DNA of 64,000 nt, taken from Asanoa ferruginea. GTDB lineage: Bacteria; Actinomycetota; Actinomycetes; Mycobacteriales; Micromonosporaceae. The translations under genes were made by a program, and so were the position numbers. The notes beneath the pieces are model-generated. The model was given only the letters and a program-made list of their open reading frames with translations, ran no database searches and was not told the origin of the DNA. Each line of letters starts with the position of its first letter. Position 1 is the stretch's first letter. This document shows, piece after piece, positions 5,841 through 40,340 of this stretch. The stretch is taken from assembly GCF_003387075.1 (NCBI RefSeq), contig NZ_QUMQ01000001.1, positions 5,456,001-5,520,000 on the forward strand. Direction: 5' to 3'.

Positions 5841-9823
<3,983 letters not shown>

Positions 9824-15509: not shown

Positions 15510-15642
15510 CTGGCTTGCCCGGCCTGTTGAGAACGCTCACATCCCGCGACCTCGATGCTGCCACACCAGTTCTCATGAACGCAATGCGTCGCGTTCGCAC
15601 CGGCGGCCTTTCCGTGCGGCGACCAGCGAGCCGTTCACCGTA

Positions 15643-15652
15643 TAACAGAAAG
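15643..15652 (+). repeat. Recurring TAACAGAAAG motif
   Basis: The same 9-10 bases occur at 7378, 20861 and 34663, each within 100-210 bases of a secreted glycosidase start. At three sites a CGCGATG/GCGGAATG-like stretch follows 15-25 bases later. The role is unknown. Confidence 0.4.
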
Positions 15653-15707: not shown

Positions 15708-15743
15708 CTTGAAACCTTTGAAACCCTGTGGCAATAATCGTCG
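15708..15743 (+). promoter_or_regulatory. Shared glycosidase promoter block
   Basis: CTTGAAAC...GAAAC...GGCAA..ATCGTCG. TTGAAA as -35 with CAATAA as -10 at 17 bases fits a housekeeping promoter. Related blocks are at 20969, 26065 (reverse) and 34592 (reverse). Confidence 0.55.
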
Positions 15744-15750
15744 CACCTCG

Positions 15751-15766
15751 ATGTGAGCGTTCACAT
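15751..15766. promoter_or_regulatory. LacI-type operator ATGTGA-GCGT-TCACAT
   Basis: Perfect 6-bp arms with central CG, seven bases after the promoter block and 44 bases before the GH27 start. The same arrangement is found at 21012 and 34569. Confidence 0.6.
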
Positions 15767-15810: not shown

Positions 15811-17454
15811 ATGAGGCACGCGTCGTGGTTAACCCGGGCGGCGACCGGACTGCTGCTCGTCGCCGGCGGGATCATCTCTATCGCGCCGGCCGCGCAGGCT
15901 CTCGACAACGGTGTCGCCCGCGTCCCACCCATGGGGTGGAACAGCTGGAACACCTTCGGCTGCAATATCAACGAAACGCTGATCCGGCAGATGGCCGACG
16001 CGCTGGTCAGCACCGGGATGCGCGACCTGGGATACCAGCACGTGGTGGTCGACGACTGCTGGTTCAACCCCAACCGGGACTCGGCCGGCAACCTCCAGGG
16101 CGACCCGACCCGGTTCCCGAGCGGGATGCGCGCCCTCGGCGACTATCTGCACGCCAGAAACCTGAAGTTCGGGCTCTACCAGGTGCCCGTCGACCGCACC
16201 TGCGCGCAATACTTCGGCGGCTATCCCGGTGCGACCGGCAGCCAGGGGCACGAGGCGCAGGACGCGCGCCAGTTCGCGGCCTGGGGCGTCGACTACCTGA
16301 AATACGACTGGTGCTCGCCCAACGGGAGCATCAACGACCAGGTGACGACGTTCGCCCGGATGCGCGACGCGCTCGCCGCGACCGGGCGGCCGATCGTCTA
16401 CAGCATCAACCCCAACAGCATCCACGCCAAGACGGGACCGTTGCGCGACTGGAGCGACGTCGCCAACCTCTGGCGCACCACCGAGGACATCACCAACGCC
16501 TGGGACACCGGGCAGACCAACGGCTATCCCATGGGCATCCAGAACATCGTCAACGTCACCGTTCCGTTGGCGGCGTATGCGCGTCCGGGCGGCTTCAACG
16601 ACCCCGACATGCTCGAGGTCGGCCGCGGCGGCATGTCGGACACCGAGATGCGTAGTCACTTCGCCCTGTGGGCCATGCTGGCGGCGCCGCTGATCGCGGG
16701 CAACGACGTGCGCTCGATGACCTCGGCGACGCAGGCCATCCTGAAGAACCAGAATCTGATCGCCATCAACCAGGACTCGCTGGCGCTCCAGGCCAACCAG
16801 GTCTCCGGCGACAGCACCCGCCGCGTGTTGGCCAAACGGCTGGCCAACGACGACGTCGCCGTCGCCGTCGCCCTGTTCAACCAGAGCGGGTCGACCAGCA
16901 CCATCTCCACCACCGCGGCTGCCATCGGCAAGACCGGCTCGTCGTTCACCCTGCGGGATGCCTGGACGAACGCGACCAGCGACACCACCGGGGCGATCAC
17001 CGCGACGGTGCCCGCACACGGCACCGCCGTCTACCGCGTCTCCGGTGGCGGCAGCGCACCGCCACCGAGCGCGGGAACGCTCGTCAGCGGGGCCTCCGGA
17101 AAGTGTCTCGACGTGCCACAGAGCAACGCGGCCAACGGCACCCAGCCGGTCATCTGGGCCTGCAACGGCGGCGCGAACCAACGCTGGACCGTCAGCGGCC
17201 AGACCGTCCAGGCCTTCGGCAAGTGCCTCGACGCGCCACTCGGCGCCACGGCCGGCGCGAAGACGCAGCTCTGGGACTGCAACGGCGGCGCCAACCAGCG
17301 CTGGAGCTTCGGCTCCGACGGAACCCTACGCGGCGAAGCGTCCCGGTTGTGCCTCGACGTCGACCGCAACCTCACCGCCAACGGCACCGCGGTGCTGCTC
17401 TGGACCTGCACCGCGGCGGCGAACCAACGGTGGACGCGGGGTAGCACCTCATGA
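15811..17454 (+). CDS. Secreted GH27 alpha-galactosidase with CBM13
   Basis: 547 residues; ATG 15811 follows GAAGGAG. Signal peptide 1-30. GH27 domain 31 to about 300: PPMGWNSWNTFGC at the start, nucleophile D166 in YLKYDWC, acid/base D226 in WRTTEDI, and NDPDML. A C-terminal beta-sandwich (to about 410) precedes a three-repeat CBM13 (GKCLDVPQ, GKCLDAPL, RLCLDVDR with QRW ends). It removes alpha-galactosyl groups (or beta-L-arabinopyranosyl, which some GH27 members prefer) outside the cell. It overlaps the following GH43 gene and carries the full promoter block upstream. Confidence 0.93.
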   Translation: MRHASWLTRAATGLLLVAGGIISIAPAAQALDNGVARVPPMGWNSWNTFGCNINETLIRQMADALVSTGMRDLGYQHVVVDDCWFNPNRDSAGNLQGDPTRFPSGMRALGDYLHARNLKFGLYQVPVDRTCAQYFGGYPGATGSQGHEAQDARQFAAWGVDYLKYDWCSPNGSINDQVTTFARMRDALAATGRPIVYSINPNSIHAKTGPLRDWSDVANLWRTTEDITNAWDTGQTNGYPMGIQNIVNVTVPLAAYARPGGFNDPDMLEVGRGGMSDTEMRSHFALWAMLAAPLIAGNDVRSMTSATQAILKNQNLIAINQDSLALQANQVSGDSTRRVLAKRLANDDVAVAVALFNQSGSTSTISTTAAAIGKTGSSFTLRDAWTNATSDTTGAITATVPAHGTAVYRVSGGGSAPPPSAGTLVSGASGKCLDVPQSNAANGTQPVIWACNGGANQRWTVSGQTVQAFGKCLDAPLGATAGAKTQLWDCNGGANQRWSFGSDGTLRGEASRLCLDVDRNLTANGTAVLLWTCTAAANQRWTRGSTS

Positions 17455-19392: not shown

Positions 19393-20829
19393 ATGCGGGC
19401 CTCCGGCGTGGACGTGACGGAGCTGGTCGTCGCGGCCCGAGACGGTGACCGGCAGGCGCTCGACGAGCTGGTCGTCCGGTTCCTGCCGCTGGTCTACACC
19501 GTGGTCCGCCGGGCCCTGCGAGGCGACCCCGACGTCGACGACGTCGTGCAGGACACGATGCTGCGTGCCGTTCGAGACCTGCCGGCCCTGCGCGACGCGG
19601 GCAGCTTCCGCCCCTGGCTGATGGCGATCACCGTGCGCCAGGTCGGCACTCACCTGCATCGCCGGCGGACGGCCGACCAGCGGAGTGCCCCCCTTGGCGA
19701 GGATCTCGACCTCGCGGACCGGGACGCCGGCGTGGAAGACGTGACGATGCTCCACCTGGCGCTTTCCGACCAGCGCCGGCAGATCGCCCGGGCCAGTCGC
19801 TGGCTGGATCCGGCCGACCGGATGCTGATGTCGCTCTGGTGGGTGGAGCACGCCGGGCACCTGACCCGGGCCGAGCTCGCCGACGCCACCGGGCTGACCG
19901 CCGCACACGCCGGGGTCCGGATCCAGCGGGCGCGGCAGCAGCTCGAGGTGAGCCGTTCGGTGGTCGCCGCGCTGGAGGCCCGACCAGGCTGCCCGCGGCT
20001 CGGCGCTGCCGCGTCCGGGTGGGACCGCGTCCCGAGCCCGCTGTGGCGCAAGCGGCTGAGCCGCCACGTGCGGTCGTGTCGGGTGTGTGGCCAGGCCACC
20101 ACCGGGCTGATCCCGACCGACCGGTTGCTCGCGGCCGCGCTGCTCCCGGTGCCCGCGGCGGTGACGATGGGGATGCTCGGCAACATCAAGGCAACGGCGG
20201 CCGGCGCCGGCGGTGCCCTGCCCGCCAAGGGCCTGATCTTCAAGATCGCAAGCGCCGTGGGTACGCGTCCGGTGCTGGCGCTGCTGGCCGCCGGAGTGGT
20301 CGTCGCCGGCGTGGTCGCCGCCGCGGTGCCGCAATGGCCGCAGTCCCACCCACCCGGACCGACCGCCGCACCGTCGCCGAACTCGGCGGAGTTGCGGCCA
20401 GGAAGTGTCTCGTTGGAAGCGGCCGATCAACCCGGCCGATACGTCGCGATGGAAGCCGACCTCGGCGTGCTGGCGAAAGTGGACGCCGCCACCTCGACCG
20501 TCACCCGGCGGCTCGCGACCTTCGACGTGACGCCCGGCCTCGCGAAGCCCAGCTGCTTCACGCTGCGGGCCTGGGACGGGCGGTATGTGCGGCACATGTC
20601 CTGGCGGCTGCGGTTGAGCGAGCCAGACGGCAGCACGCTCTTCCGGGGCGACGCCACCTTCTGTCCCCGGCCAGGCGTGCTGCCCGGCTCGATCGCCCTC
20701 GAGTCGGCCAACTACCCCGGCTGGTATCTGCGGCATCGCGACGACGAGTTGTGGGTCGACCGGGTCGACGGGCGCACCGCGTTGGGCGCCGACGGCGCGT
20801 TCCTGGTCCGCCCGGCCCTGGCCGGCTGA
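19393..20829 (+). CDS. ECF-like sigma factor fused to zinc-finger, membrane segment and AbfB (CBM42) sensor domain
   Basis: 478 residues from ATG 19393 (GAGG five bases before); GTG 19387 is an alternative. Order of domains: sigma region 2 (about 22-92, with DVDDVVQDTMLRAVRDLP and SFRPWLMAITVRQV); sigma region 4 (about 138-190, RAELADATGLTAAHAGVRIQRARQQL); an anti-sigma-like ZAS motif HVRSCRVC (H225, C229, C232); a hydrophobic segment at about 292-311 (LALLAAGVVVAGVVAAAV); a Pro-rich linker; then an AbfB beta-trefoil (about 336-478, SIALESANYPGWYLRHRDDEL). AbfB domains bind arabinofuranosyl side chains. The topology puts sigma inside and AbfB outside. C-terminally extended ECF groups with ZAS and carbohydrate-binding parts have been described; pairing with AbfB inside an arabinofuranosidase island suggests direct polysaccharide sensing. 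No separate anti-sigma gene is adjacent. Confidence 0.87.
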   Translation: MRASGVDVTELVVAARDGDRQALDELVVRFLPLVYTVVRRALRGDPDVDDVVQDTMLRAVRDLPALRDAGSFRPWLMAITVRQVGTHLHRRRTADQRSAPLGEDLDLADRDAGVEDVTMLHLALSDQRRQIARASRWLDPADRMLMSLWWVEHAGHLTRAELADATGLTAAHAGVRIQRARQQLEVSRSVVAALEARPGCPRLGAAASGWDRVPSPLWRKRLSRHVRSCRVCGQATTGLIPTDRLLAAALLPVPAAVTMGMLGNIKATAAGAGGALPAKGLIFKIASAVGTRPVLALLAAGVVVAGVVAAAVPQWPQSHPPGPTAAPSPNSAELRPGSVSLEAADQPGRYVAMEADLGVLAKVDAATSTVTRRLATFDVTPGLAKPSCFTLRAWDGRYVRHMSWRLRLSEPDGSTLFRGDATFCPRPGVLPGSIALESANYPGWYLRHRDDELWVDRVDGRTALGADGAFLVRPALAG

Positions 20830-20860
20830 GCGCCGAGGGACCACGCGGGTGCCCCGCGGA

Positions 20861-20870
20861 TAACAGAAAG
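20861..20870 (+). repeat. Recurring TAACAGAAAG motif, copy 3
   Basis: Lies 99 bases upstream of the promoter block of the GH43/GH62 operon, in the same orientation as the copy at 15643. Confidence 0.4.
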
Positions 20871-20968
20871 CCGGCTGGTCGGTTTCGCGGAATGCATCGA
20901 ACCACGCGCCCGGAAAGTGTTACCGACCAGAACCGAAAATGGTCGCCGGTTCAATTCTCGGGAACGCC

Positions 20969-21004
20969 CTTGAAACTATCGGAAATAGTCTGGCAACATC
21001 GTCG
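20969..21004 (+). promoter_or_regulatory. Shared glycosidase promoter block (GH43/GH62 operon)
   Basis: CTTGAAAC, CGGAAA, then TGGCAACATCGTCG. TTGAAA and CAACAT stand 18 bases apart as -35/-10. Alternatively GGAAAT, 16 bases, CGTA resembles an ECF-type promoter. Confidence 0.55.
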
Positions 21005-21011
21005 TACCTCG

Positions 21012-21027
21012 ATGTGAACGCTCACAT
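21012..21027. promoter_or_regulatory. LacI-type operator ATGTGA-ACGC-TCACAT
   Basis: Same palindrome as at 15751 with the centre reversed, again seven bases after the promoter block and 16 bases before the start codon. Confidence 0.6.
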
Positions 21028-21043
21028 TTCGGAGAGGACAACG

Positions 21044-23083
21044 ATGACGAGACGCGTCCTGGCGGCGGCCGCCGCGGCGATCCTGCTCACCGGCGCGCTG
21101 GTCGGCTTCGGCGCGGCTCCCGCGTCGGCGGCGAGCGTGGACCCGAGCGGCTGGTACGTGTTGGTCAATCGCAACAGCGGCAAGGCGTTGGACGTCTACA
21201 ACCTGGCGACCAACGACGGTGCCCGGATCACCCAATGGACCCGCAATGACGGCGCACAGCAGCAGTGGCAGTTCGTCGATTCCGGCGACGGCTTCTACCG
21301 GCTCAGGTCGCGGGTTTCCGGAAAGGTGCTCGACGTCTACAACCGGTCGACCGCCGACGGCGGTGCGATCGTGCAATGGGCCGACAACAACGGCACCAAC
21401 CAGCAGTTCCGGCTCGCTGACTCGGCGGGCGGCTACGTGCGGCTGGTCAACCGCAACAGCGGCAAGGTGGTCGAGGTGCAGGGCGCCGCGACCACCGACG
21501 GGGCCAACGTCGTGCAATACACCGACTGGGGCGGCAACAACCAGCAGTGGCAACTCGTCCCCGTCGGCGGTGCCGGCGGCGGTGGCACCTACGCCAACCC
21601 CGTGGTCTGGCAGGACTTCGCCGACGGCGACATCATCCGGGTCGGCGACGCCTACTACTACTCGGCGTCCACCATGCACTACTCGCCCGGAGCGCCGATC
21701 CTGCGCTCCTACGACCTGGTCAACTGGGAGTACGCCGGCCACTCGGTGCCCAGCCTCGACTTCGGCTCGAACGCCTACAACCTGAGCGGCGGCCGGGCGT
21801 ACGTGAAGGGAATCTGGGCGTCGACGCTGAACTACCGGCGCAGCAACGGCACCTATTACTGGCTCGGCTGCGTCGAGTTCAACCGCACCTACGTCTACAC
21901 GGCCACCGCGGTCGACGGCACGTGGCAGAAGCGCGCACAGATCAACAACTGCTACTACGACGCCGGACTGCTGGTCGACGACAACGACACCATGTATGTC
22001 GCGTACGGCAACACGAACATCAGCGTCGCCCAACTCTCGGCCGACGGCCTGAGCCAGGTGCGCAGCCAGCAGGTGTTCAGCACCCCGTCGAGCGTCGGCA
22101 CGCTGGAAGGCGCCCGGTTCTACAAGCGCAACGGCAGCTACTACATCTGGCTGACCCGCCCGGCCAACGGCCAGTACGTGCTCAAGTCCAGCAGCCCCTT
22201 CGGCCCGTACGAGATGCGGCAGGTGCTCCTGGATCTTCCCGGCCCGATCGCCGGTGGCGGTGTGCCACACCAGGGCGGCCTGGTGCAGACCCAGAACGGC
22301 GACTGGTACTACATGGCCTTCGTCGACGCCTATCCCGGCGGCCGGATGCCGGCGCTGGCTCCGATCACCTGGAGTTCCGACGGCTGGCCGACCGTGCAGA
22401 CCGTCAACGGCGCCTGGGGCAGCAGCTATGCCAAGCCCAACATCCCGGCCTCCGGGCGCACCGTGCAGTCGATGATCGGCCCCGACACGTTCGGCACCAC
22501 CGCGCTCGGCCCCCGGTGGGAGTGGAACCACAACCCCGACAACACCCGCTGGTCGGCCGGCAACGGCCTGCGGCTCCAGACGGCGACCGTCACCAACGAC
22601 CTCTACGCGGCCCGCAACACCCTCACCCATCGGATCCAGGGGCCGTCGTCCACCGCGACCATCGAGGTGGACTACTCCGCGATGGCCAACGGCGACCGCG
22701 CGGGTCTGGCCATGCTGCGCGACTCGTCGGCCTGGATCGGCGTCCGCCGCGACAACGGCGTCAGCCGCGTGTCGATGACCAATGGGCTCACGATGAACAG
22801 CAGTTGGGCCACCACCGGCACCGGCACCGAGCAGGCCGGTGCCACGGTCACCGGCGGCCGGATCTGGTTGCGGGTCAACGCCGACATCCGGCCCGGATCC
22901 GGCCGCCAGGCCCGGTTCTCCTACAGCACCGACGGCACCACCTTCACCAGCCTCGGGCCCGCGTTCACGCTCAACAACGCCTGGCAGTTCTTCATGGGCT
23001 ACCGGTTCGCGATGTTCAACTACGCCACCCAGGCGCTCGGCGGCTCGGTCACGGTCCGCCGTTTCGACCTCACCACCCCCTGA
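21044..23083 (+). CDS. Secreted CBM13-GH43 (beta-xylosidase/arabinofuranosidase type)
   Basis: 679 residues from ATG 21044, behind GGAGAGG; a longer frame upstream would cross the operator and is not used. Signal peptide 1-31. An N-terminal RICIN/CBM13 trefoil (about 34-180, QQQWQFVD and NQQWQLV ends) precedes the GH43 propeller (about 185-475, [24 protein letters not shown] with the base Asp; [20 protein letters not shown] with the acid Glu). A C-terminal beta-sandwich (about 490-679, [19 protein letters not shown]) is the usual companion of beta-xylosidase-like GH43 enzymes. It is transcribed with the GH62 gene 20 bases downstream, whose N-terminal module is nearly the same. Confidence 0.9.
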
Positions 23084-23103
23084 ACGTGAACGGAGGAATC
23101 GAC

Positions 23104-24603
23104 ATGACGAACCAATCCAGCCGGCGACGTTGGTGGTTGCCACGGGTCGTCGCCGGCGGTGTCGCGGCGGTTATGGTCGCTGTCGCCGCCGCGGCGGTGC
23201 TGGCGACGCCGGCCGCCGCGGCGACGGTCGACACGAGCGCGTGGTATGTGTTGCTCAACCGCAACAGCGGCAAGGCCTTGGACGTCTACAACCTCGCGAC
23301 GAACGACGGCGCGCGGATCACCCAGTGGGCACGGAACAACGGCAACCAGCAACAGTGGCAGTTCGTCGACTCCGGCAGCGGCTACTACCGGCTGAGGTCC
23401 CGGTTGTCCGGCAAGGTGCTCGACGTCTACAACTTCTCGACCGCCAACGGCGGGTCCATCGTGCAGTGGACCGACCTCAACGGGACCAATCAGCAGTTCC
23501 GGTTGGCCGACTCCGACAGCGGCTACGTGCGGTTCATCAACCGCAACAGCAACAAGGTGGTCGAGGTCCAGGGCGCCTCGACCGCCGACGGTGGAAACAT
23601 CGTGCAGTACGACGACTGGAATGGCAGCAACCAGCAGTGGCAACTCGTCCGCGTCGACGGCGGGTCAAACCCCACCACACCGCCGCCGAGCGGGAGCTGC
23701 TCTCTTCCCTCCACCTACCGCTGGACCTCGACCGGTTCGCTGGCGACTCCGAGGTCTGGGTGGGTCTCGCTAAAGGACTTCACCTACGCCCCCTACAACG
23801 GCCGGCGTCTGGTCTATGCGACGAACCACAACACCGGCACGGCGTGGGGCTCGATGAACTTCAGCCTCTTCACGAACTGGTCCGACCTGGGCTCGGCGAC
23901 CCAGAACGCCATGCCGTTCGCCGCGGTGGCACCCACCCTGTTCTATTTCGCGCCGAAGAACATCTGGGTGCTGGCCTATCAGTGGGGTGGGACCGCCTTC
24001 TCCTACCGGACGTCGAGCGATCCGAGCAACGTGAACAGCTGGTCATCGCAGCAGGTGCTCTTCAACGGCAGCATCTCCGGCTCTGGCACCGGCCCGATCG
24101 ACCAGACCCTGATCGGCGACAGCACGAACATGTACCTGTTCTTCGCCGGAGACAACGGCAAGATCTACCGGTCGAGCATGCCGATCGGTAACTTCCCCGG
24201 CAGCTTCGGCTCGTCGACGACGACGATCATGAGTGACTCGACGAACAACCTGTTCGAGGCCGTTCAGGTCTACAAGCTCCAGGGTGAGACCCGCTACCTC
24301 ATGATCGTGGAAGCCATCGGCTCGCAGGGCCGCTACTTCCGCTCGTTCACTGCCACCAGCCTGAGCGGCTCGTGGACACCGCAGGCCGCGTCCGAGAGCA
24401 ACCCGTTCGCCGGCAAGGCCAACAGCGGTGCGACCTGGACCAACGACATCAGCCACGGCGATCTGGTACGCAGCAACGCCGACCAGACGATGACCGTCGA
24501 CCCCTGCAACCTGCAACTGCTCTACCAGGGACGGTCTCCGAGCTCGGGCGGCGACTACGGCCTGCTGCCCTACCGGCCAGGTGTCCTGACCCTGCAACGC
24601 TGA
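23104..24603 (+). CDS. Secreted CBM13-GH62 alpha-L-arabinofuranosidase
   Basis: 499 residues; ATG 23104 follows ACGGAGGAATC. Signal peptide about 1-39. CBM13 trefoil about 40-190. After a PTTPPPSG linker comes the GH62 domain (about 195-499), starting [24 protein letters not shown]. Family landmarks [36 protein letters not shown] and a C-terminal [14 protein letters not shown] are all present. GH62 enzymes remove arabinofuranose from singly substituted xylose in arabinoxylan. Second gene of the operon; a hairpin separates it from the convergent GH10 gene. Confidence 0.93.
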
Positions 24604-26100: not shown

Positions 26101-26140
26101 AGGTGAAATGTGTTATGGGATCGACCCCAATAAAGTCGTA

Positions 26141-26196: not shown

Positions 26197-27519
26197 ATGG
26201 CCAAGCGCACCGATCCGCATCGTTGGCGCAGACTGCTCGCGATCACGGGAAGCGTCGTGCTGGCCGGTGCCGGGATCACCGGCATCCGGCTCGGCTCCGC
26301 GGCCGCGGACGCCGTTCCCCTCGCAGCGACGGCCGGCTGTGGCAGGGCCCCGGCGTTGAACAGTGGCACCCAGACGATCCAGAGCAGCGGTCAGAGTCGC
26401 AGTTTCATCCTGCGGGTTCCCGCCAACTACAACAGCAATAATCCGTACCGGTTGATTTTCGCGTTCCACTGGCGCGGTGGCACGATGAATGACGTCGCCT
26501 CGGGCGGAAGCAGTGGAAGCGCCTGGGCCTACTACGGGATGCAGGAGCAATCGGCCAACAGCGCGATCCTGGTGGCGCCGCAGGGCCTCGGCAATGGCTG
26601 GGCCAATTCCGGCGGTCAAGACATCACCCTGGTCGACGACATCATGAAGCGAATCGAAGACGCCCTCTGTGTCGACCCGACGCAGCGCTTCGCGATGGGG
26701 TTCAGCTACGGGGGTGGCATGAGCTACGCGATCGCGTGCACCCGTGCCACCGTCTTCCGGGCGGTTGCGGTCTACTCCGGCGCGCAGCTCAGTGGATGCA
26801 GCGGTGGCACCCAGCCGATCGCATACTTCGGGATCCACGGCATCTCGGACAATGTCCTCAACATCTCCGCAGGACGTTCGTTGCGTGACACGTTCGTGCG
26901 CAACAACGGCTGCACCGCCCAGAGTCCGCGCGAGCCGGGCGCGGGAAGCGGGTCACACATCACCACCGCCTACTCGTGCCGAACGGGATATCCGGTGCAG
27001 TGGGCCGCCTTCGACGGCGGTCACGGGCCCGGTCCCGTCGACGGCTGCTCCGGCTGTGAAGACGGCACCAGGACCTGGACCAAGGGCGAAGTGTGGCGGT
27101 TCTTCGCCCAGTTCGGGGCCACCACTCCGACGCCCAGCCCGAGCGGTAACCGGTTGCGCAACGAAGCCTCCGGCCGCTGCCTGGACGTCAGCCAGGCCTC
27201 CACGGCCAACGGGGCACAGCTCCAGATCTGGGACTGCCACACCAACGCCAACCAGCAGTTCACCCAGAACGGCAACGCCCTACAGGTGACCGGGAAGTGC
27301 CTGGACGCCCCACCCAACGCCGCCGCCGGCACCCGGGTGCAGATCTGGGACTGCAACGGCGGCGCCAACCAGAGCTGGGTCTTCAACAGCAACGGCACGA
27401 TCAGCAGCGCCCAGACCGGCCTGTGCCTCGACGTCAACGGCGCCGCCACCACCAACGGCTCCGCGGTCATCGTCTGGACCTGCCACGGCGGCACCAACCA
27501 ACGCTGGACCCGGGCGTAG
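26197..27519 (+). CDS. Secreted CE1/PHB-depolymerase-type esterase with CBM13
   Basis: 440 residues; ATG 26197 behind TGGAGTGA. Signal peptide about 1-38. The alpha/beta hydrolase domain (about 45-305) shows LIFAFHWRGG (oxyanion region), nucleophile S170 in GFSYGGG and a His in FDGGHGPG. This group includes feruloyl esterases and acetyl xylan esterases of CE1 as well as polyhydroxybutyrate depolymerase-like proteins. Fusion to a xylan-type CBM13 (about 315-440) and the divergent xylanase favour a feruloyl or acetyl xylan esterase. The CBM13 is a near-copy of that in the xylanase at 24653. Confidence 0.86.
   Translation: MAKRTDPHRWRRLLAITGSVVLAGAGITGIRLGSAAADAVPLAATAGCGRAPALNSGTQTIQSSGQSRSFILRVPANYNSNNPYRLIFAFHWRGGTMNDVASGGSSGSAWAYYGMQEQSANSAILVAPQGLGNGWANSGGQDITLVDDIMKRIEDALCVDPTQRFAMGFSYGGGMSYAIACTRATVFRAVAVYSGAQLSGCSGGTQPIAYFGIHGISDNVLNISAGRSLRDTFVRNNGCTAQSPREPGAGSGSHITTAYSCRTGYPVQWAAFDGGHGPGPVDGCSGCEDGTRTWTKGEVWRFFAQFGATTPTPSPSGNRLRNEASGRCLDVSQASTANGAQLQIWDCHTNANQQFTQNGNALQVTGKCLDAPPNAAAGTRVQIWDCNGGANQSWVFNSNGTISSAQTGLCLDVNGAATTNGSAVIVWTCHGGTNQRWTRA
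27148..27512 (+). repeat. 365-bp inverted repeat, right arm (CBM13 module)
   Basis: Partner of 24660-25024. The 2,123 bases between the arms hold both catalytic domains and the divergent promoters, so inversion by recombination would leave both fusions intact. Confidence 0.9.
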
Positions 27520-34568: not shown

Positions 34569-34584
34569 GTGTTAGCGCTCACAT
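34569..34584. promoter_or_regulatory. LacI-type operator GTGTTAGCGCTCACAT
   Basis: Read leftward: ATGTGAGCGCTAACAC, seven bases after the promoter block and 10 bases before the GH127 start. It belongs to the 15751/21012 set with one arm diverged. Confidence 0.55.
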
Positions 34585-34591
34585 CGAATGA

Positions 34592-34627
34592 CGCCGATGT
34601 TGCCAGATGGTTTCCGGGAGATTCAAG
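34592..34627 (-). promoter_or_regulatory. Shared glycosidase promoter block (GH127 operon)
   Basis: Read leftward: CTTGAATC, CCGGAAACC, TCTGGCAACATCGGCG. TTGAAT and CAACAT are 18 bases apart. GGAAAC, 16 bases, CGTC also fits an ECF-type promoter. Confidence 0.55.
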
Positions 34628-39105: not shown

Positions 39106-40191
39106 CTACGAACCCTCCGCCGGTTCCGCCAGGACAGACGGGCTCACAGCCGACGCGATGCCGGGCTCCGGGTCCACGAATCCCGTGGACTCGCGCGCCG
39201 CGACCCGGAAGTCGGCCAGGATCTGCCGCGGCGGCGCCGGGTCGCCCTTCTCGTTGATCCGCTCGATCAACAGGTCGACGGCGACCTCCGCGATCTGGTC
39301 CCGGCCCGGGTCGACGCTCGACATCGACGGGACCGAGAAGCGGGCCTCGTCGATGTTGTCGAGCCCGATCACCGCGACGTCTTCCGGGACCCGGACTCCG
39401 GCCTGCCCCAGCGTGCGGAGGGCGCCCAGCCCGAGCGTGTCGTTGAACGTGAACACGGCGTCGAACTCGACACCGGCGGCCAGCAGGTCGCGCATCGCGG
39501 CGGCGCCGTTCTCGCGATGCCACGGTGCGGCGACCCGCACGAGCGCCGGGTCGTAGGGGATGCCGGCCGCGGCCAGGGCCTCCCGGTAGCCGCGTACGCG
39601 AAGGTTCGCCGACCGGATGTCGTCTTGATGGGTCGGGTGCGCGCCGATCACCGCGATGCGCCGGCGGCCGATCTCGAGCAGGTGCTCGGTGGCCGCGCGG
39701 GCCGAGCCCACGTTGTGCATGGTGACGTGGTCGGTGGGGCCGTCGAACATCCGCTCGCCGAGCAGCACCAGCGGGAACGGCACCTGGAGCAGCGCGATGT
39801 CGTCTTGCCCGAGCTGCTCGGGACTGAAGAGGAGCCCGTCGGTCAGCCGCAGCCGGTGCCCGGCCAGCACCGCGATCTCGCCTTCCCGCGTGGCTCCGGT
39901 CTGATCGACGAGCACCGCCACGTTGCGCCGCTCCGCCGCCCGGATGACGGCGTCGGCGAGCTCGGCGAAGTAGTTCTGCCGCAGCTCCGGGATCGCGAGC
40001 CCGATGACCCCGGTCTTGCCTGAACGCAGCCCGCGCGCCGAGAGGTTGGGCCGGTAGTCCAGCGCCGCGATCGCCGAGCGCACCCGTTCGCGGGTCGCAT
40101 CGCGCACGTATGGATAGTCGTTGATGACGTTGGAAACCGTCTTGACCGATACCCCGGCGACGCGCGCGACGTCGTGCATGGTGGCGGCCAT
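39106..40191 (-). CDS. LacI-family transcriptional repressor
   Basis: 361 residues from ATG 40191, behind GAGGGAG; an earlier ATG at 40206 overlaps that ribosome site. The helix-turn-helix with hinge helix is at about 4-55 (MHDVARVAGVSVKTVSNVIN...LSARGLRSGKTG). The periplasmic-binding-like effector domain (about 60-340) has FTFNDTLGLGALRTLGQAGVRVPEDVAVIGLDN. It is divergent from the ABC/GH51 operon. Its likely operators, TACAACGTTGTA variants, occur in pairs at that operon and at both tandem esterase genes. The effector is probably an arabino- or xylo-oligosaccharide or its monomer. Confidence 0.9.
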   Translation of the reverse strand: MAATMHDVARVAGVSVKTVSNVINDYPYVRDATRERVRSAIAALDYRPNLSARGLRSGKTGVIGLAIPELRQNYFAELADAVIRAAERRNVAVLVDQTGATREGEIAVLAGHRLRLTDGLLFSPEQLGQDDIALLQVPFPLVLLGERMFDGPTDHVTMHNVGSARAATEHLLEIGRRRIAVIGAHPTHQDDIRSANLRVRGYREALAAAGIPYDPALVRVAAPWHRENGAAAMRDLLAAGVEFDAVFTFNDTLGLGALRTLGQAGVRVPEDVAVIGLDNIDEARFSVPSMSSVDPGRDQIAEVAVDLLIERINEKGDPAPPRQILADFRVAARESTGFVDPEPGIASAVSPSVLAEPAEGS

Positions 40192-40340
40192 TGGAAACTC
40201 CCTCATCGCGCGGCGCCCGCAGGGACGCGGACTTGAAAAGAGTGTAGCGGCGTGTTGTCGGCCGGCGAGTTGGCCAGAAGCAAGTCCCTCTTGCCGGCGT
40301 CTATGCCTGCGACGGGTGCATTCGGCGGTGTCCCGCAGTC

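What the first reader, a model, noticed from the sequence alone, without database searches (positions are those of the whole stretch)
19393..20829. Sigma factor with its own zinc-finger, membrane anchor and extracellular arabinose-binding AbfB domain
Seen: sigma regions 2 and 4, an HxxxCxxC anti-sigma-like motif, one hydrophobic segment and a C-terminal AbfB (CBM42) trefoil in one 478-residue frame, with no adjacent anti-sigma gene. Known: AbfB modules bind arabinofuranosyl decorations, and ECF groups with C-terminal ZAS and carbohydrate-binding extensions exist. Inference: sugar binding outside, or proteolysis triggered by it, frees the sigma domain to transcribe the surrounding GH43/GH62/GH54/GH127 genes. 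That would be a single-protein polysaccharide sensor.
Basis: partly seen in the sequence, partly recalled or inferred. Interest (0 to 1): 0.9.

Follow-up and report, generated by a model that had tools for sequence, protein, structure and literature searches.

The report
Membrane sigma factor with arabinose-binding sensor
A soil bacterium encodes one membrane-anchored protein that joins a gene-switching sigma factor to an outside domain expected to grip arabinose side chains of plant fibre, and in most relatives examined its gene sits next to enzymes that digest that fibre, so it is probably a one-piece sensor for plant food.

Summary
Observation confirmed: 19393-20829 (+) encodes 478 aa with ECF sigma regions 2 and 4, a Cys/His zinc-binding anti-sigma-like segment, one convincing membrane helix, a Pro-rich linker and a C-terminal AbfB/CBM42 domain; both neighbours are GH43 genes. 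The general kind (ECF52/ECF53: sigma, zinc finger, membrane helix and carbohydrate domain in one chain) is already predicted in print, so this is a new member of a known kind. Added here: 102 of 175 distinct relatives examined carry AbfB; their zinc ligands, disulphide cysteines and one sugar-pocket His/Asp pair do not vary. An adjacent gene is GH10/43/54/62 in 72 of 99 Micromonosporaceae loci, against 0 of 44 and 0 of 13 loci with two other sensor domains. Two specific DNA elements mark the regulon's promoters and track AbfB-sigma across genomes (element 2: 55 of 97 against 1 of 120). This supports a sensor tied to an arabinoxylan regulon. That the sigma domain itself transcribes the neighbouring enzymes is not shown: the elements resemble, or lie helically phased upstream of, housekeeping promoters, and LacI-type operators sit beside them in the window. 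Sugar binding, localisation and proteolysis are untested.

The parts
19393..20829 (+). single-chain ECF sigma / zinc anti-sigma-like / membrane helix / AbfB protein, 478 aa (P0001)
19468..19668 (+). sigma region 2 (residues 26-92)
   Evidence: Pfam PF04542 E 1.1e-12
19735..19977 (+). sigma region 4 helices (about residues 115-195)
   Evidence: NCBIfam TIGR02937 to residue 185; helices in the model; Pfam region 4 model does not match this protein
19990..20100 (+). zinc-binding anti-sigma-like segment, C200, H225, C229, C232
   Evidence: identical in 102 of 102; helices at pLDDT 91-97; no Pfam zf-HC2 match in this protein
20269..20325 (+). predicted membrane helix, residues 293-311
   Evidence: not modelled with confidence (pLDDT below 50)
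20326..20400 (+). Pro/Ala/Ser-rich linker
   Evidence: sequence; family linkers 70% P+A+S+T over 99 proteins
20410..20808 (+). AbfB / CBM42 beta-trefoil, residues 340-472; disulphide pair C388-C424 and pocket H401/D420
   Evidence: model and Foldseek matches to CBM42 structures; conservation
20919..20945 (+). element 2 (GTTAC-N18-GTCG) upstream of the GH43/RicinB gene
   Evidence: PWM 23.5
20832..20874 (-). inverted partner of element 2, 55 bp away (the modal family spacing); weaker score 13.8, last base of GTCG differs
20970..20996 (+). element 1 (TTGAAA...GAAA...TCTGGCAA), housekeeping-type promoter layout
   Evidence: 0 mismatches
21013..21026 (+). TGTGAACGCTCACA palindrome, LacI-type operator candidate
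21044..23083 (+). RicinB-GH43-GH43_C2 gene, next gene downstream
   Evidence: start read
23086..24603 (+). RicinB-GH62, the only GH62 match in this genome
17451..19259 (+). GH43-CBM6-CBM4_9 gene, next gene upstream
15811..17454 (+). GH27-RicinB gene overlapping the start of the GH43 gene; element 1 at 15709-15734 and palindrome at 15752-15765 upstream
15620..15646 (-). element 2, exact, no gene in the sense direction nearby
26112..26138 (+). element 2, exact and best-scoring (30.7), 58 bp before the esterase/RicinB gene at 26197
7355..7381 (-). element 2, exact (17.0), before the GH10-CBM2 gene (5841-7361)
34600..34626 (-). element 1 (1 mismatch) before the GH127 gene, with palindrome at 34570-34583 (1 mismatch)

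Best explanation
It is a one-protein transmembrane signalling system for arabinoxylan-type polysaccharides. Shown by sequence or comparison: an ECF sigma domain, a four-ligand zinc segment of anti-sigma type, one good membrane helix, a Pro-rich linker and a CBM42 (AbfB) domain in one chain, conserved as a set; arabinoxylan enzymes beside it; a regulon-like pair of DNA elements whose presence follows it. Inferred: the zinc segment holds the sigma domain inactive at the membrane; the AbfB domain outside binds arabinofuranosyl side chains; binding exposes the protein to site-1 and site-2 proteolysis (or a conformational change); the freed sigma domain joins RNA polymerase and switches on the arabinoxylan regulon, directly or through another regulator. 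Which step meets the DNA elements is open.
For: Architecture. Zinc ligands, C388/C424 and pocket H401/D420 identical in 102 of 102; by alignment to 1wd3 these fall on Cys401/Cys439 and His416/Asp435 of A. kawachii AbfB (offset and role of these residues recalled). CBM42 folds are the best structural matches, among them 9fnk, named RsgI5 in the sequence search. Direct neighbours of AbfB-sigma genes: GH43 37, GH62 30, GH10 22, RicinB 64 of 203; distal genes of the same loci: GH43 2, GH10 2 of 100 sampled from 543. GH10/43/54/62 adjacent in 72 of 99 Micromonosporaceae loci, 85 of 99 within five genes (GH127 counted too), 0 of 44 CAP-type, 0 of 13 glycosidase-like-type. Element 2: 163 cross-validated hits against 7 in reversed sequence, most frequent beside the sigma gene (34 of 101 genes at -1, 24 of 102 at +1, 17 of 102 at the sigma gene, 1-7% at other offsets). 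Genomes with AbfB-sigma 55 of 97, without 1 of 120. Within genus g4, 5 of 10 against 2 of 96. Away from the known loci, 18 of 38 genes behind the element carry RicinB, 9 CBM2, 7 GH10, 5 GH62.
Against: No wet evidence. Element 2 in tandem intergenic regions is 43 sense to 30 antisense, unlike a plain promoter; it forms inverted, helically phased pairs and is phased to downstream promoters of housekeeping type. So the sigma may not bind it. No element-2 site was found before the sigma gene of this window, and only 16 of 102 loci have one before their sigma gene. Element 2 is absent or weak in 42 of 97 AbfB-sigma genomes (strict pattern, insensitive: this genome itself has 0 strict hits). Directly before GH62 genes it is rare even in AbfB-sigma genomes: 4 of 30 loci, against 0 of 30 in genomes without. 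The second pocket (H448/D467) is kept in only 58 and 67 of 102. In 2 of the 3 Streptomyces AbfB-sigma loci the neighbours are GH95 and GH2 genes, in the third neither neighbour is a glycosidase.
Confidence: 0.6

Rival explanations
1. The enzymes are run by other regulators: an unidentified activator at element 2, housekeeping sigma at element 1, and a LacI-family repressor at the palindromes. The AbfB-sigma gene is a fellow member or a parallel sensor of the regulon, and its sigma domain serves other targets.
For: Element 2 has one rigid spacing (75 hits at 18 bp, 0-2 at each other spacing from 12 to 25), weak strand bias (43:30), inverted pairs 37 to 1 convergent with 10.5-bp phasing (R 0.66), and phasing to element 1 (54 pairs, R 0.58). 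A promoter of TTG[AC]-N17-[TC]A...T form lies 25-120 bp downstream in 29 of 39 sense sites with element 1, 13 of 56 without, 1 of 41 sites with neither gene nor element 1, and 13 of 926 background stretches. LacI-type palindromes beside element 1 at three window genes and a LacI-family gene at 39106-40206.
Against: Among gene clusters tabulated around the sigma genes no other regulator recurs at a fixed place (inspected by size and position; members not all annotated). Element 2 follows AbfB-sigma genomes closely. Its layout, A-tract, -35-like block, fixed spacer and GTC block, also fits ECF promoters (recalled).
Confidence: 0.27
2. AbfB is an anchor, not a sensor: it ties the cell surface to arabinoxylan, and the sigma is controlled by something else.
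For: CBM42 domains normally serve as binding modules of enzymes (family knowledge). Sigma and AbfB could be linked only to keep the cell near its food.
Against: In relatives the same sigma-zinc-membrane chassis carries different outer domains (CAP 44, glycosidase-like 13, others), and in the loci examined the enzyme neighbourhood goes with AbfB, as expected for a sensor.
Confidence: 0.08
3. The zinc segment is the input: an oxidative or thiol signal frees the sigma, as in RsrA-type systems, and AbfB only modulates.
For: All four zinc ligands identical in 102 of 102.
Against: Redox zinc anti-sigma factors need no conserved outer sugar domain; the neighbours are glycosidases, not redox genes.
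Confidence: 0.05

Closest known systems
ECF52 / ECF53 sigma factors of Actinobacteria (SCO4117 of Streptomyces coelicolor is the characterised ECF52)
   Same: sigma domain, zinc finger, membrane helix, Pro-rich stretch and carbohydrate-binding domain in one chain; Actinobacteria; proteolytic release proposed (passages of PMC8999054, PMC5826349, PMC10766802)
   Different: SCO4117 carries smart00776 instead of AbfB and controls development and secondary metabolism; here AbfB and an arabinoxylan neighbourhood. Group number of this protein not tested
SigI5/RsgI5 of Clostridium thermocellum
   Same: a CBM42 domain outside a membrane regulator of a sigma factor; RsgI5 CBM42 is among the best sequence and fold matches; RsgI systems signal by autocleavage, RseP and ClpXP (passages of PMC12203970)
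   Different: two proteins, SigI and RsgI; RsgI_N instead of a zinc segment (RsgI_N-UNK-CBM42 in PMC4711584); different sigma family; here everything is in one chain
AbfB / CBM42 of GH54 and GH43 arabinofuranosidases (1wd3, 3kmv, 9nxg)
   Same: fold, disulphide positions and one His/Asp pocket
   Different: there it is a targeting module of an enzyme, here the outer domain of a sigma factor
IutY of Pseudomonas putida (ECF243)
   Same: sigma and anti-sigma fused in one protein, released by proteolysis (passage of PMC8999054)
   Different: iron-siderophore signal and outer-membrane receptor

Membership tests
ECF sigma factor | regions 2 and 4 only, over the curated cut-off of the ECF model | tested here: met
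   TIGR02937 63.1 bits, cut-off 42.9, residues 22-185; PF04542 over cut-off. Pfam region 4 model alone does not match this protein
ECF52/ECF53-type (fused zinc anti-sigma, membrane, carbohydrate domain) | C-terminal zinc segment with Cys/His ligands | tested here: met
   C200, H225, C229, C232 in 102 of 102; Pfam zf-HC2 itself not matched
ECF52/ECF53-type (fused zinc anti-sigma, membrane, carbohydrate domain) | one to two membrane helices | tested here: met
   one convincing helix 293-311, a second hydrophobic stretch unlikely to insert; prediction only. Over 102 proteins the C-terminal stretch is the more membrane-like in 74 (insertion scale) or 47 (hydropathy)
ECF52/ECF53-type (fused zinc anti-sigma, membrane, carbohydrate domain) | Pro-rich stretch and carbohydrate-active outer domain | tested here: met
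ECF52/ECF53-type (fused zinc anti-sigma, membrane, carbohydrate domain) | assignment to group 52 or 53 by the published sigma-domain models | not tested
   models and classification papers not held
AbfB / CBM42 | curated profile, fold, disulphide and arabinose pocket | tested here: met
   PF05270 130 bits, cut-off 22.8; Foldseek 9fnk TM 0.86 by target length; C388/C424, H401/D420 102 of 102
AbfB / CBM42 | binds arabinofuranosyl side chains | not testable with these tools
   needs a binding assay
RsgI anti-sigma factor | separate protein with RsgI_N domain, paired with SigI | tested here: not met
   one chain with ECF sigma regions; no RsgI_N among Pfam matches
Regulated intramembrane proteolysis substrate | site-1 and site-2 cleavage on signal | not testable with these tools
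   M50 proteases exist in the genome, but also in 14 of 14 control genomes, so this says little

The most novel reading that the evidence does not exclude
A sigma-fold protein released from the membrane by a plant polysaccharide acts at element 2 not as an ordinary promoter-recognition factor but as an activator: polymerase carrying it, or the protein itself, sits at inverted, helically phased pairs and boosts neighbouring housekeeping-type promoters of the arabinoxylan regulon. That would be a sigma factor used like a class I activator, in a single-protein glycan sensor.
Probability: 0.1. Interest if true: 0.88.

Novelty: new member of a known kind. Interest (0 to 1): 0.6.

Why it matters
For ECF52 and ECF53 the sugar-sensing idea is said to lack experimental validation (PMC10766802, passages). 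The AbfB branch makes it testable: a defined ligand family, a defined set of target genes and two sharp DNA elements. If true, Actinobacteria sense polysaccharides with one protein where Clostridium thermocellum uses two, with the same CBM42 module, and the outer domain of such sigma factors would predict which plant polymer a strain is equipped to eat.

Tried and rejected
Chance or frame artefact: rejected, the whole frame aligns with 102 AbfB-type relatives. Two-helix topology with a cytosolic AbfB: disfavoured for this protein, not excluded for every relative: charge before the last hydrophobic stretch exceeds charge after it in 66 of 102, equal in 18, lower in 18. A first membrane count was faulty, it skipped segments, and was replaced.

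Element 2 as a simple ECF promoter was my first reading; weakened it. Element 1 as the sigma's promoter: less likely, its layout (TTGAAT, 17 bp, TGG-CAATAT) is housekeeping-like (judged from recalled consensus), yet it too tracks AbfB-sigma (66 of 97 against 3 of 120; 7 of 120 if TTGACA variants are not dropped). GH62 genes as a genome-wide test of the regulon gave little. The genome-wide test used E-value proxies for 'has AbfB-sigma' (sigma match 1e-75 or better and AbfB match 1e-35 or better; without: sigma match weaker than 1e-60 or none); 83 of 300 genomes fell between and were set aside, 6 of them with element 2 and 18 with element 1. Of 88 genomes with the strict element-2 pattern I dropped 26 whose only hits read GTTATT, a different conserved sequence in many of them; undropped, 63 of 97 against 1 of 120. 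The cross-validation folds were random, not by clade, so related loci share folds.

Gene calling was my own script; in L019 the sigma gene was split, so one of the 203 'neighbours' is a piece of its own sigma gene and was left in. The 80 named and 100 unnamed loci are best matches, so counts are not population frequencies. The 40 unlinked sites were picked by hand from the list as lying away from AbfB-sigma loci I knew; 2 had no called gene, one (G209) is 19 kb from a sigma locus, and one (L326) precedes a gene that itself looks like a sigma of this family.

Full report
What is there. The frame 19393-20829 (+) encodes 478 residues. Region 2 of sigma-70 (26-92) and AbfB (340-472) pass Pfam cut-offs; the ECF model of NCBIfam spans 22-185. 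Between them lie C200...H225-x3-C229-x2-C232, a predicted membrane helix at 293-311 and a Pro/Ala/Ser-rich linker. The AlphaFold model (28 sequences, mean pLDDT 81, pTM 0.39) is confident for the sigma helices, the zinc segment and the beta-trefoil, and has no confidence for 287-331, so it says nothing on membrane or relative placement. Foldseek finds CBM42 structures first. The Pfam models of region 4 and of zf-HC2 do not match this protein.

The family. By protein search, 223 of 300 family genomes hold a match at E<=1e-12 to some part. I took 80 named loci and about 19 kb around 100 unnamed hits, giving 175 distinct proteins with the window. Their outer ends are AbfB in 102, CAP in 44, a glycosidase-core domain (PF11790) type in 13, three of an unknown type, one beta-helix, two single odd ends, and ten with almost no outer part. 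A second copy in this genome, at 7.06 Mb, is of the PF11790 type. On a sigma-domain tree the labels need 15 changes against at least 61 in 200 shuffles; AbfB sits on two separate branches, 99 Micromonosporaceae proteins and 3 of Streptomyces nested among other types, so the outer domain has probably been exchanged. The window protein's nearest named relative is Asanoa siamensis (61%), whose protein is identical to that of a genome the tool lists in the window's own genus.

Sensor anatomy. In 102 of 102 AbfB-type proteins the four zinc ligands, C388, C424, H401 and D420 are identical; H448 and D467 are kept in 58 and 67. The alignment with A. kawachii AbfB puts these on its disulphide and on its two pockets; the roles of those residues are recalled, not looked up. 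An invariant disulphide pair and a Pro-rich linker argue for an outside AbfB domain. The best solved sequence relatives include a domain named RsgI5 of Clostridium thermocellum, 9fnk, so a CBM42 module is used in another sigma-regulating membrane protein.

Neighbourhood. Of 203 direct neighbours of the 102 AbfB-sigma genes, 37 are GH43, 30 GH62, 22 GH10, 64 carry RicinB and 24 CBM2. Of 100 genes five or more places away (sampled from 543), 2 are GH43 and 2 GH10; GH62 and RicinB are not among the 25 families listed, a list that ends at two members. Of 87 neighbours of CAP-type sigma genes none of these is among the 25 families listed; of 26 neighbours of the PF11790 type none is a glycosidase. 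With seeds from the window, an immediate neighbour is GH10, GH43, GH54 or GH62 in 72 of 99 Micromonosporaceae AbfB loci, 85 of 99 within five genes with GH127 also counted, 0 of 44, 0 of 13, 0 of 3 Streptomyces AbfB loci, and 3 of 10 loci whose sigma lacks an outer part (GH10 only). Two of the three Streptomyces loci adjoin GH95 and GH2 genes instead. In this genome 2 of 4 GH43 genes flank the sigma gene and the only GH62 lies two genes on.

DNA elements. Comparing 250 bases upstream (plus 60 inside) of 403 near genes with 543 far genes gave two elements. Element 2 is GAAAAnTGTTATG-N16-TGGTCG, with the distance from GTTAT to GTCG fixed at 18 (75 hits, 0-2 at each other distance from 12 to 25). 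A cross-validated scan of 102 loci gives 163 hits at score 12 or more against 7 in reversed sequence; 115 lie before a gene in its sense, most at -1 (34 of 101), +1 (24 of 102) and the sigma gene (17 of 102), 1-7% at other places. Density is 157 hits in 1.94 Mb of AbfB loci, 5 in 0.84 Mb of CAP loci, 6 in 0.26 Mb of PF11790-type loci (not cross-validated). Element 1 is TTGAAT-N5-GAAACATTCTGG-CAATAT, 85 hits at score 14 or more against 0 in reversed sequence, 81 in AbfB loci at score 12 or more, 0 in CAP and 0 in PF11790-type loci.

Do the elements belong to AbfB-sigma? Over 300 family genomes, the strict element 2 is present in 55 of 97 with AbfB-sigma, 1 of 120 without, 6 of 83 undecided; element 1 in 66 of 97, 3 of 120 and 18 of 83. 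Inside genus g4, where most genomes lack AbfB-sigma, the figures are 5 of 10 against 2 of 96 and 6 of 10 against 4 of 96. Forty element-2 sites away from the sigma loci I knew were fetched; of 38 genes behind them 18 carry RicinB, 9 CBM2, 7 are GH10, 5 GH62, 4 GDSL-like, 3 GH59. In this genome 19 sites match GTTAT-N18-GTCG (7 with the reversed control pattern), and 3 of the 19 lie in the 64-kb window. The window has 5 GTTAY forms against 0.49 expected. A weak result: directly before GH62 genes element 2 appears in 4 of 30 loci (3 sense) of AbfB-sigma genomes and 0 of 30 of others.

Does the sigma read element 2? Its layout would suit an ECF promoter. But in tandem intergenic regions it is 43 sense to 30 antisense; copies form inverted pairs (37 divergent, 11 same-strand, 1 convergent) spaced near 23, 34-38, 44-45, 52-58, 74-75 bp, a 10.5-bp rhythm (R 0.66); and element 1 follows it on the same strand with the same rhythm (54 pairs, R 0.58). 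Element 1 is more clearly oriented (27 sense, 6 antisense). A housekeeping-type promoter lies 25-120 bp downstream of sense element-2 sites in 29 of 39 with element 1 and 13 of 56 without, against 13 of 926 background stretches and 1 of 41 sites with neither gene nor element 1; 8 of 14 sigma genes with element 2 have one too. This is how activator sites behave. The window shows the full set before the GH43 gene: inverted pair 55 bp apart, element 1 51 bp on, then a TGTGAACGCTCACA palindrome. Similar palindromes follow element 1 at the GH27 and GH127 genes, and a LacI-family gene lies at 39106-40206. So at least one other regulator probably acts on these genes.

Known and new. Passages of PMC8999054, PMC5826349 and PMC10766802 describe ECF52 and ECF53 as sigma factors with fused zinc finger, one or two membrane helices and, in some, carbohydrate-binding or glycosidase domains, propose proteolytic release, and say that validation is lacking. 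PMC4711584 and PMC12203970 (passages) cover RsgI5 with CBM42 and the RsgI proteolysis steps. Searches for ECF sigma with AbfB, for ECF52/ECF53 with glycoside hydrolases and for Micromonosporaceae, xylan and sigma factor gave no paper on this combination in the held library, which lacks the classification papers. I therefore call the protein a new member of a known kind; the AbfB-to-arabinoxylan match over many genomes and the two elements are, as far as these searches reach, new.

Noticed in passing
G000:C1:7058039 (L002:1399-3432, P0003): Second fused sigma factor in the same genome, with a PF11790 glycosidase-core domain outside; 26 neighbours of 13 relatives of this type are not glycosidases (luciferase-like and HATPase genes recur).
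   Followed up: partly
L034 and 43 further loci of L039-L093: Sigma-zinc-membrane proteins, mostly of Streptomyces, whose outer domain is CAP (PF00188 in the one tested, L034); what they sense is unknown.
   Followed up: partly
L022, L024, L025, L200, L201: Close relatives with sigma and zinc segment but no membrane helix or outer domain; GH10 genes adjoin 3 of the 10 loci without an outer part.
   Followed up: no
L075:9983-12103: Relative with a right-handed beta-helix as outer domain.
   Followed up: no
window 20832-20951 and 36 further pairs in AbfB loci: Inverted element-2 pairs with 10.5-bp phased spacing; one copy often points antisense into the 3' end of the sigma gene.
   Followed up: partly
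window 15752-15765, 21013-21026, 34570-34583, 15528-15541: TGTGARCGYTCACA-like palindromes, three of them just after element 1; LacI-family gene at 39106-40206.
   Followed up: partly
many genus g4 genomes, e.g. G196, G198, G161: A different conserved sequence, AAACCGTTATTCGATCT...GTCG, one copy per genome in many Micromonospora-like genomes, unrelated to element 2.
   Followed up: no
G195, G213, G223, G241, G245, G255, G199: Conserved sequence AAACAGTTATTGACTAGAGG...GTCG in genus g29, unexplained.
   Followed up: no
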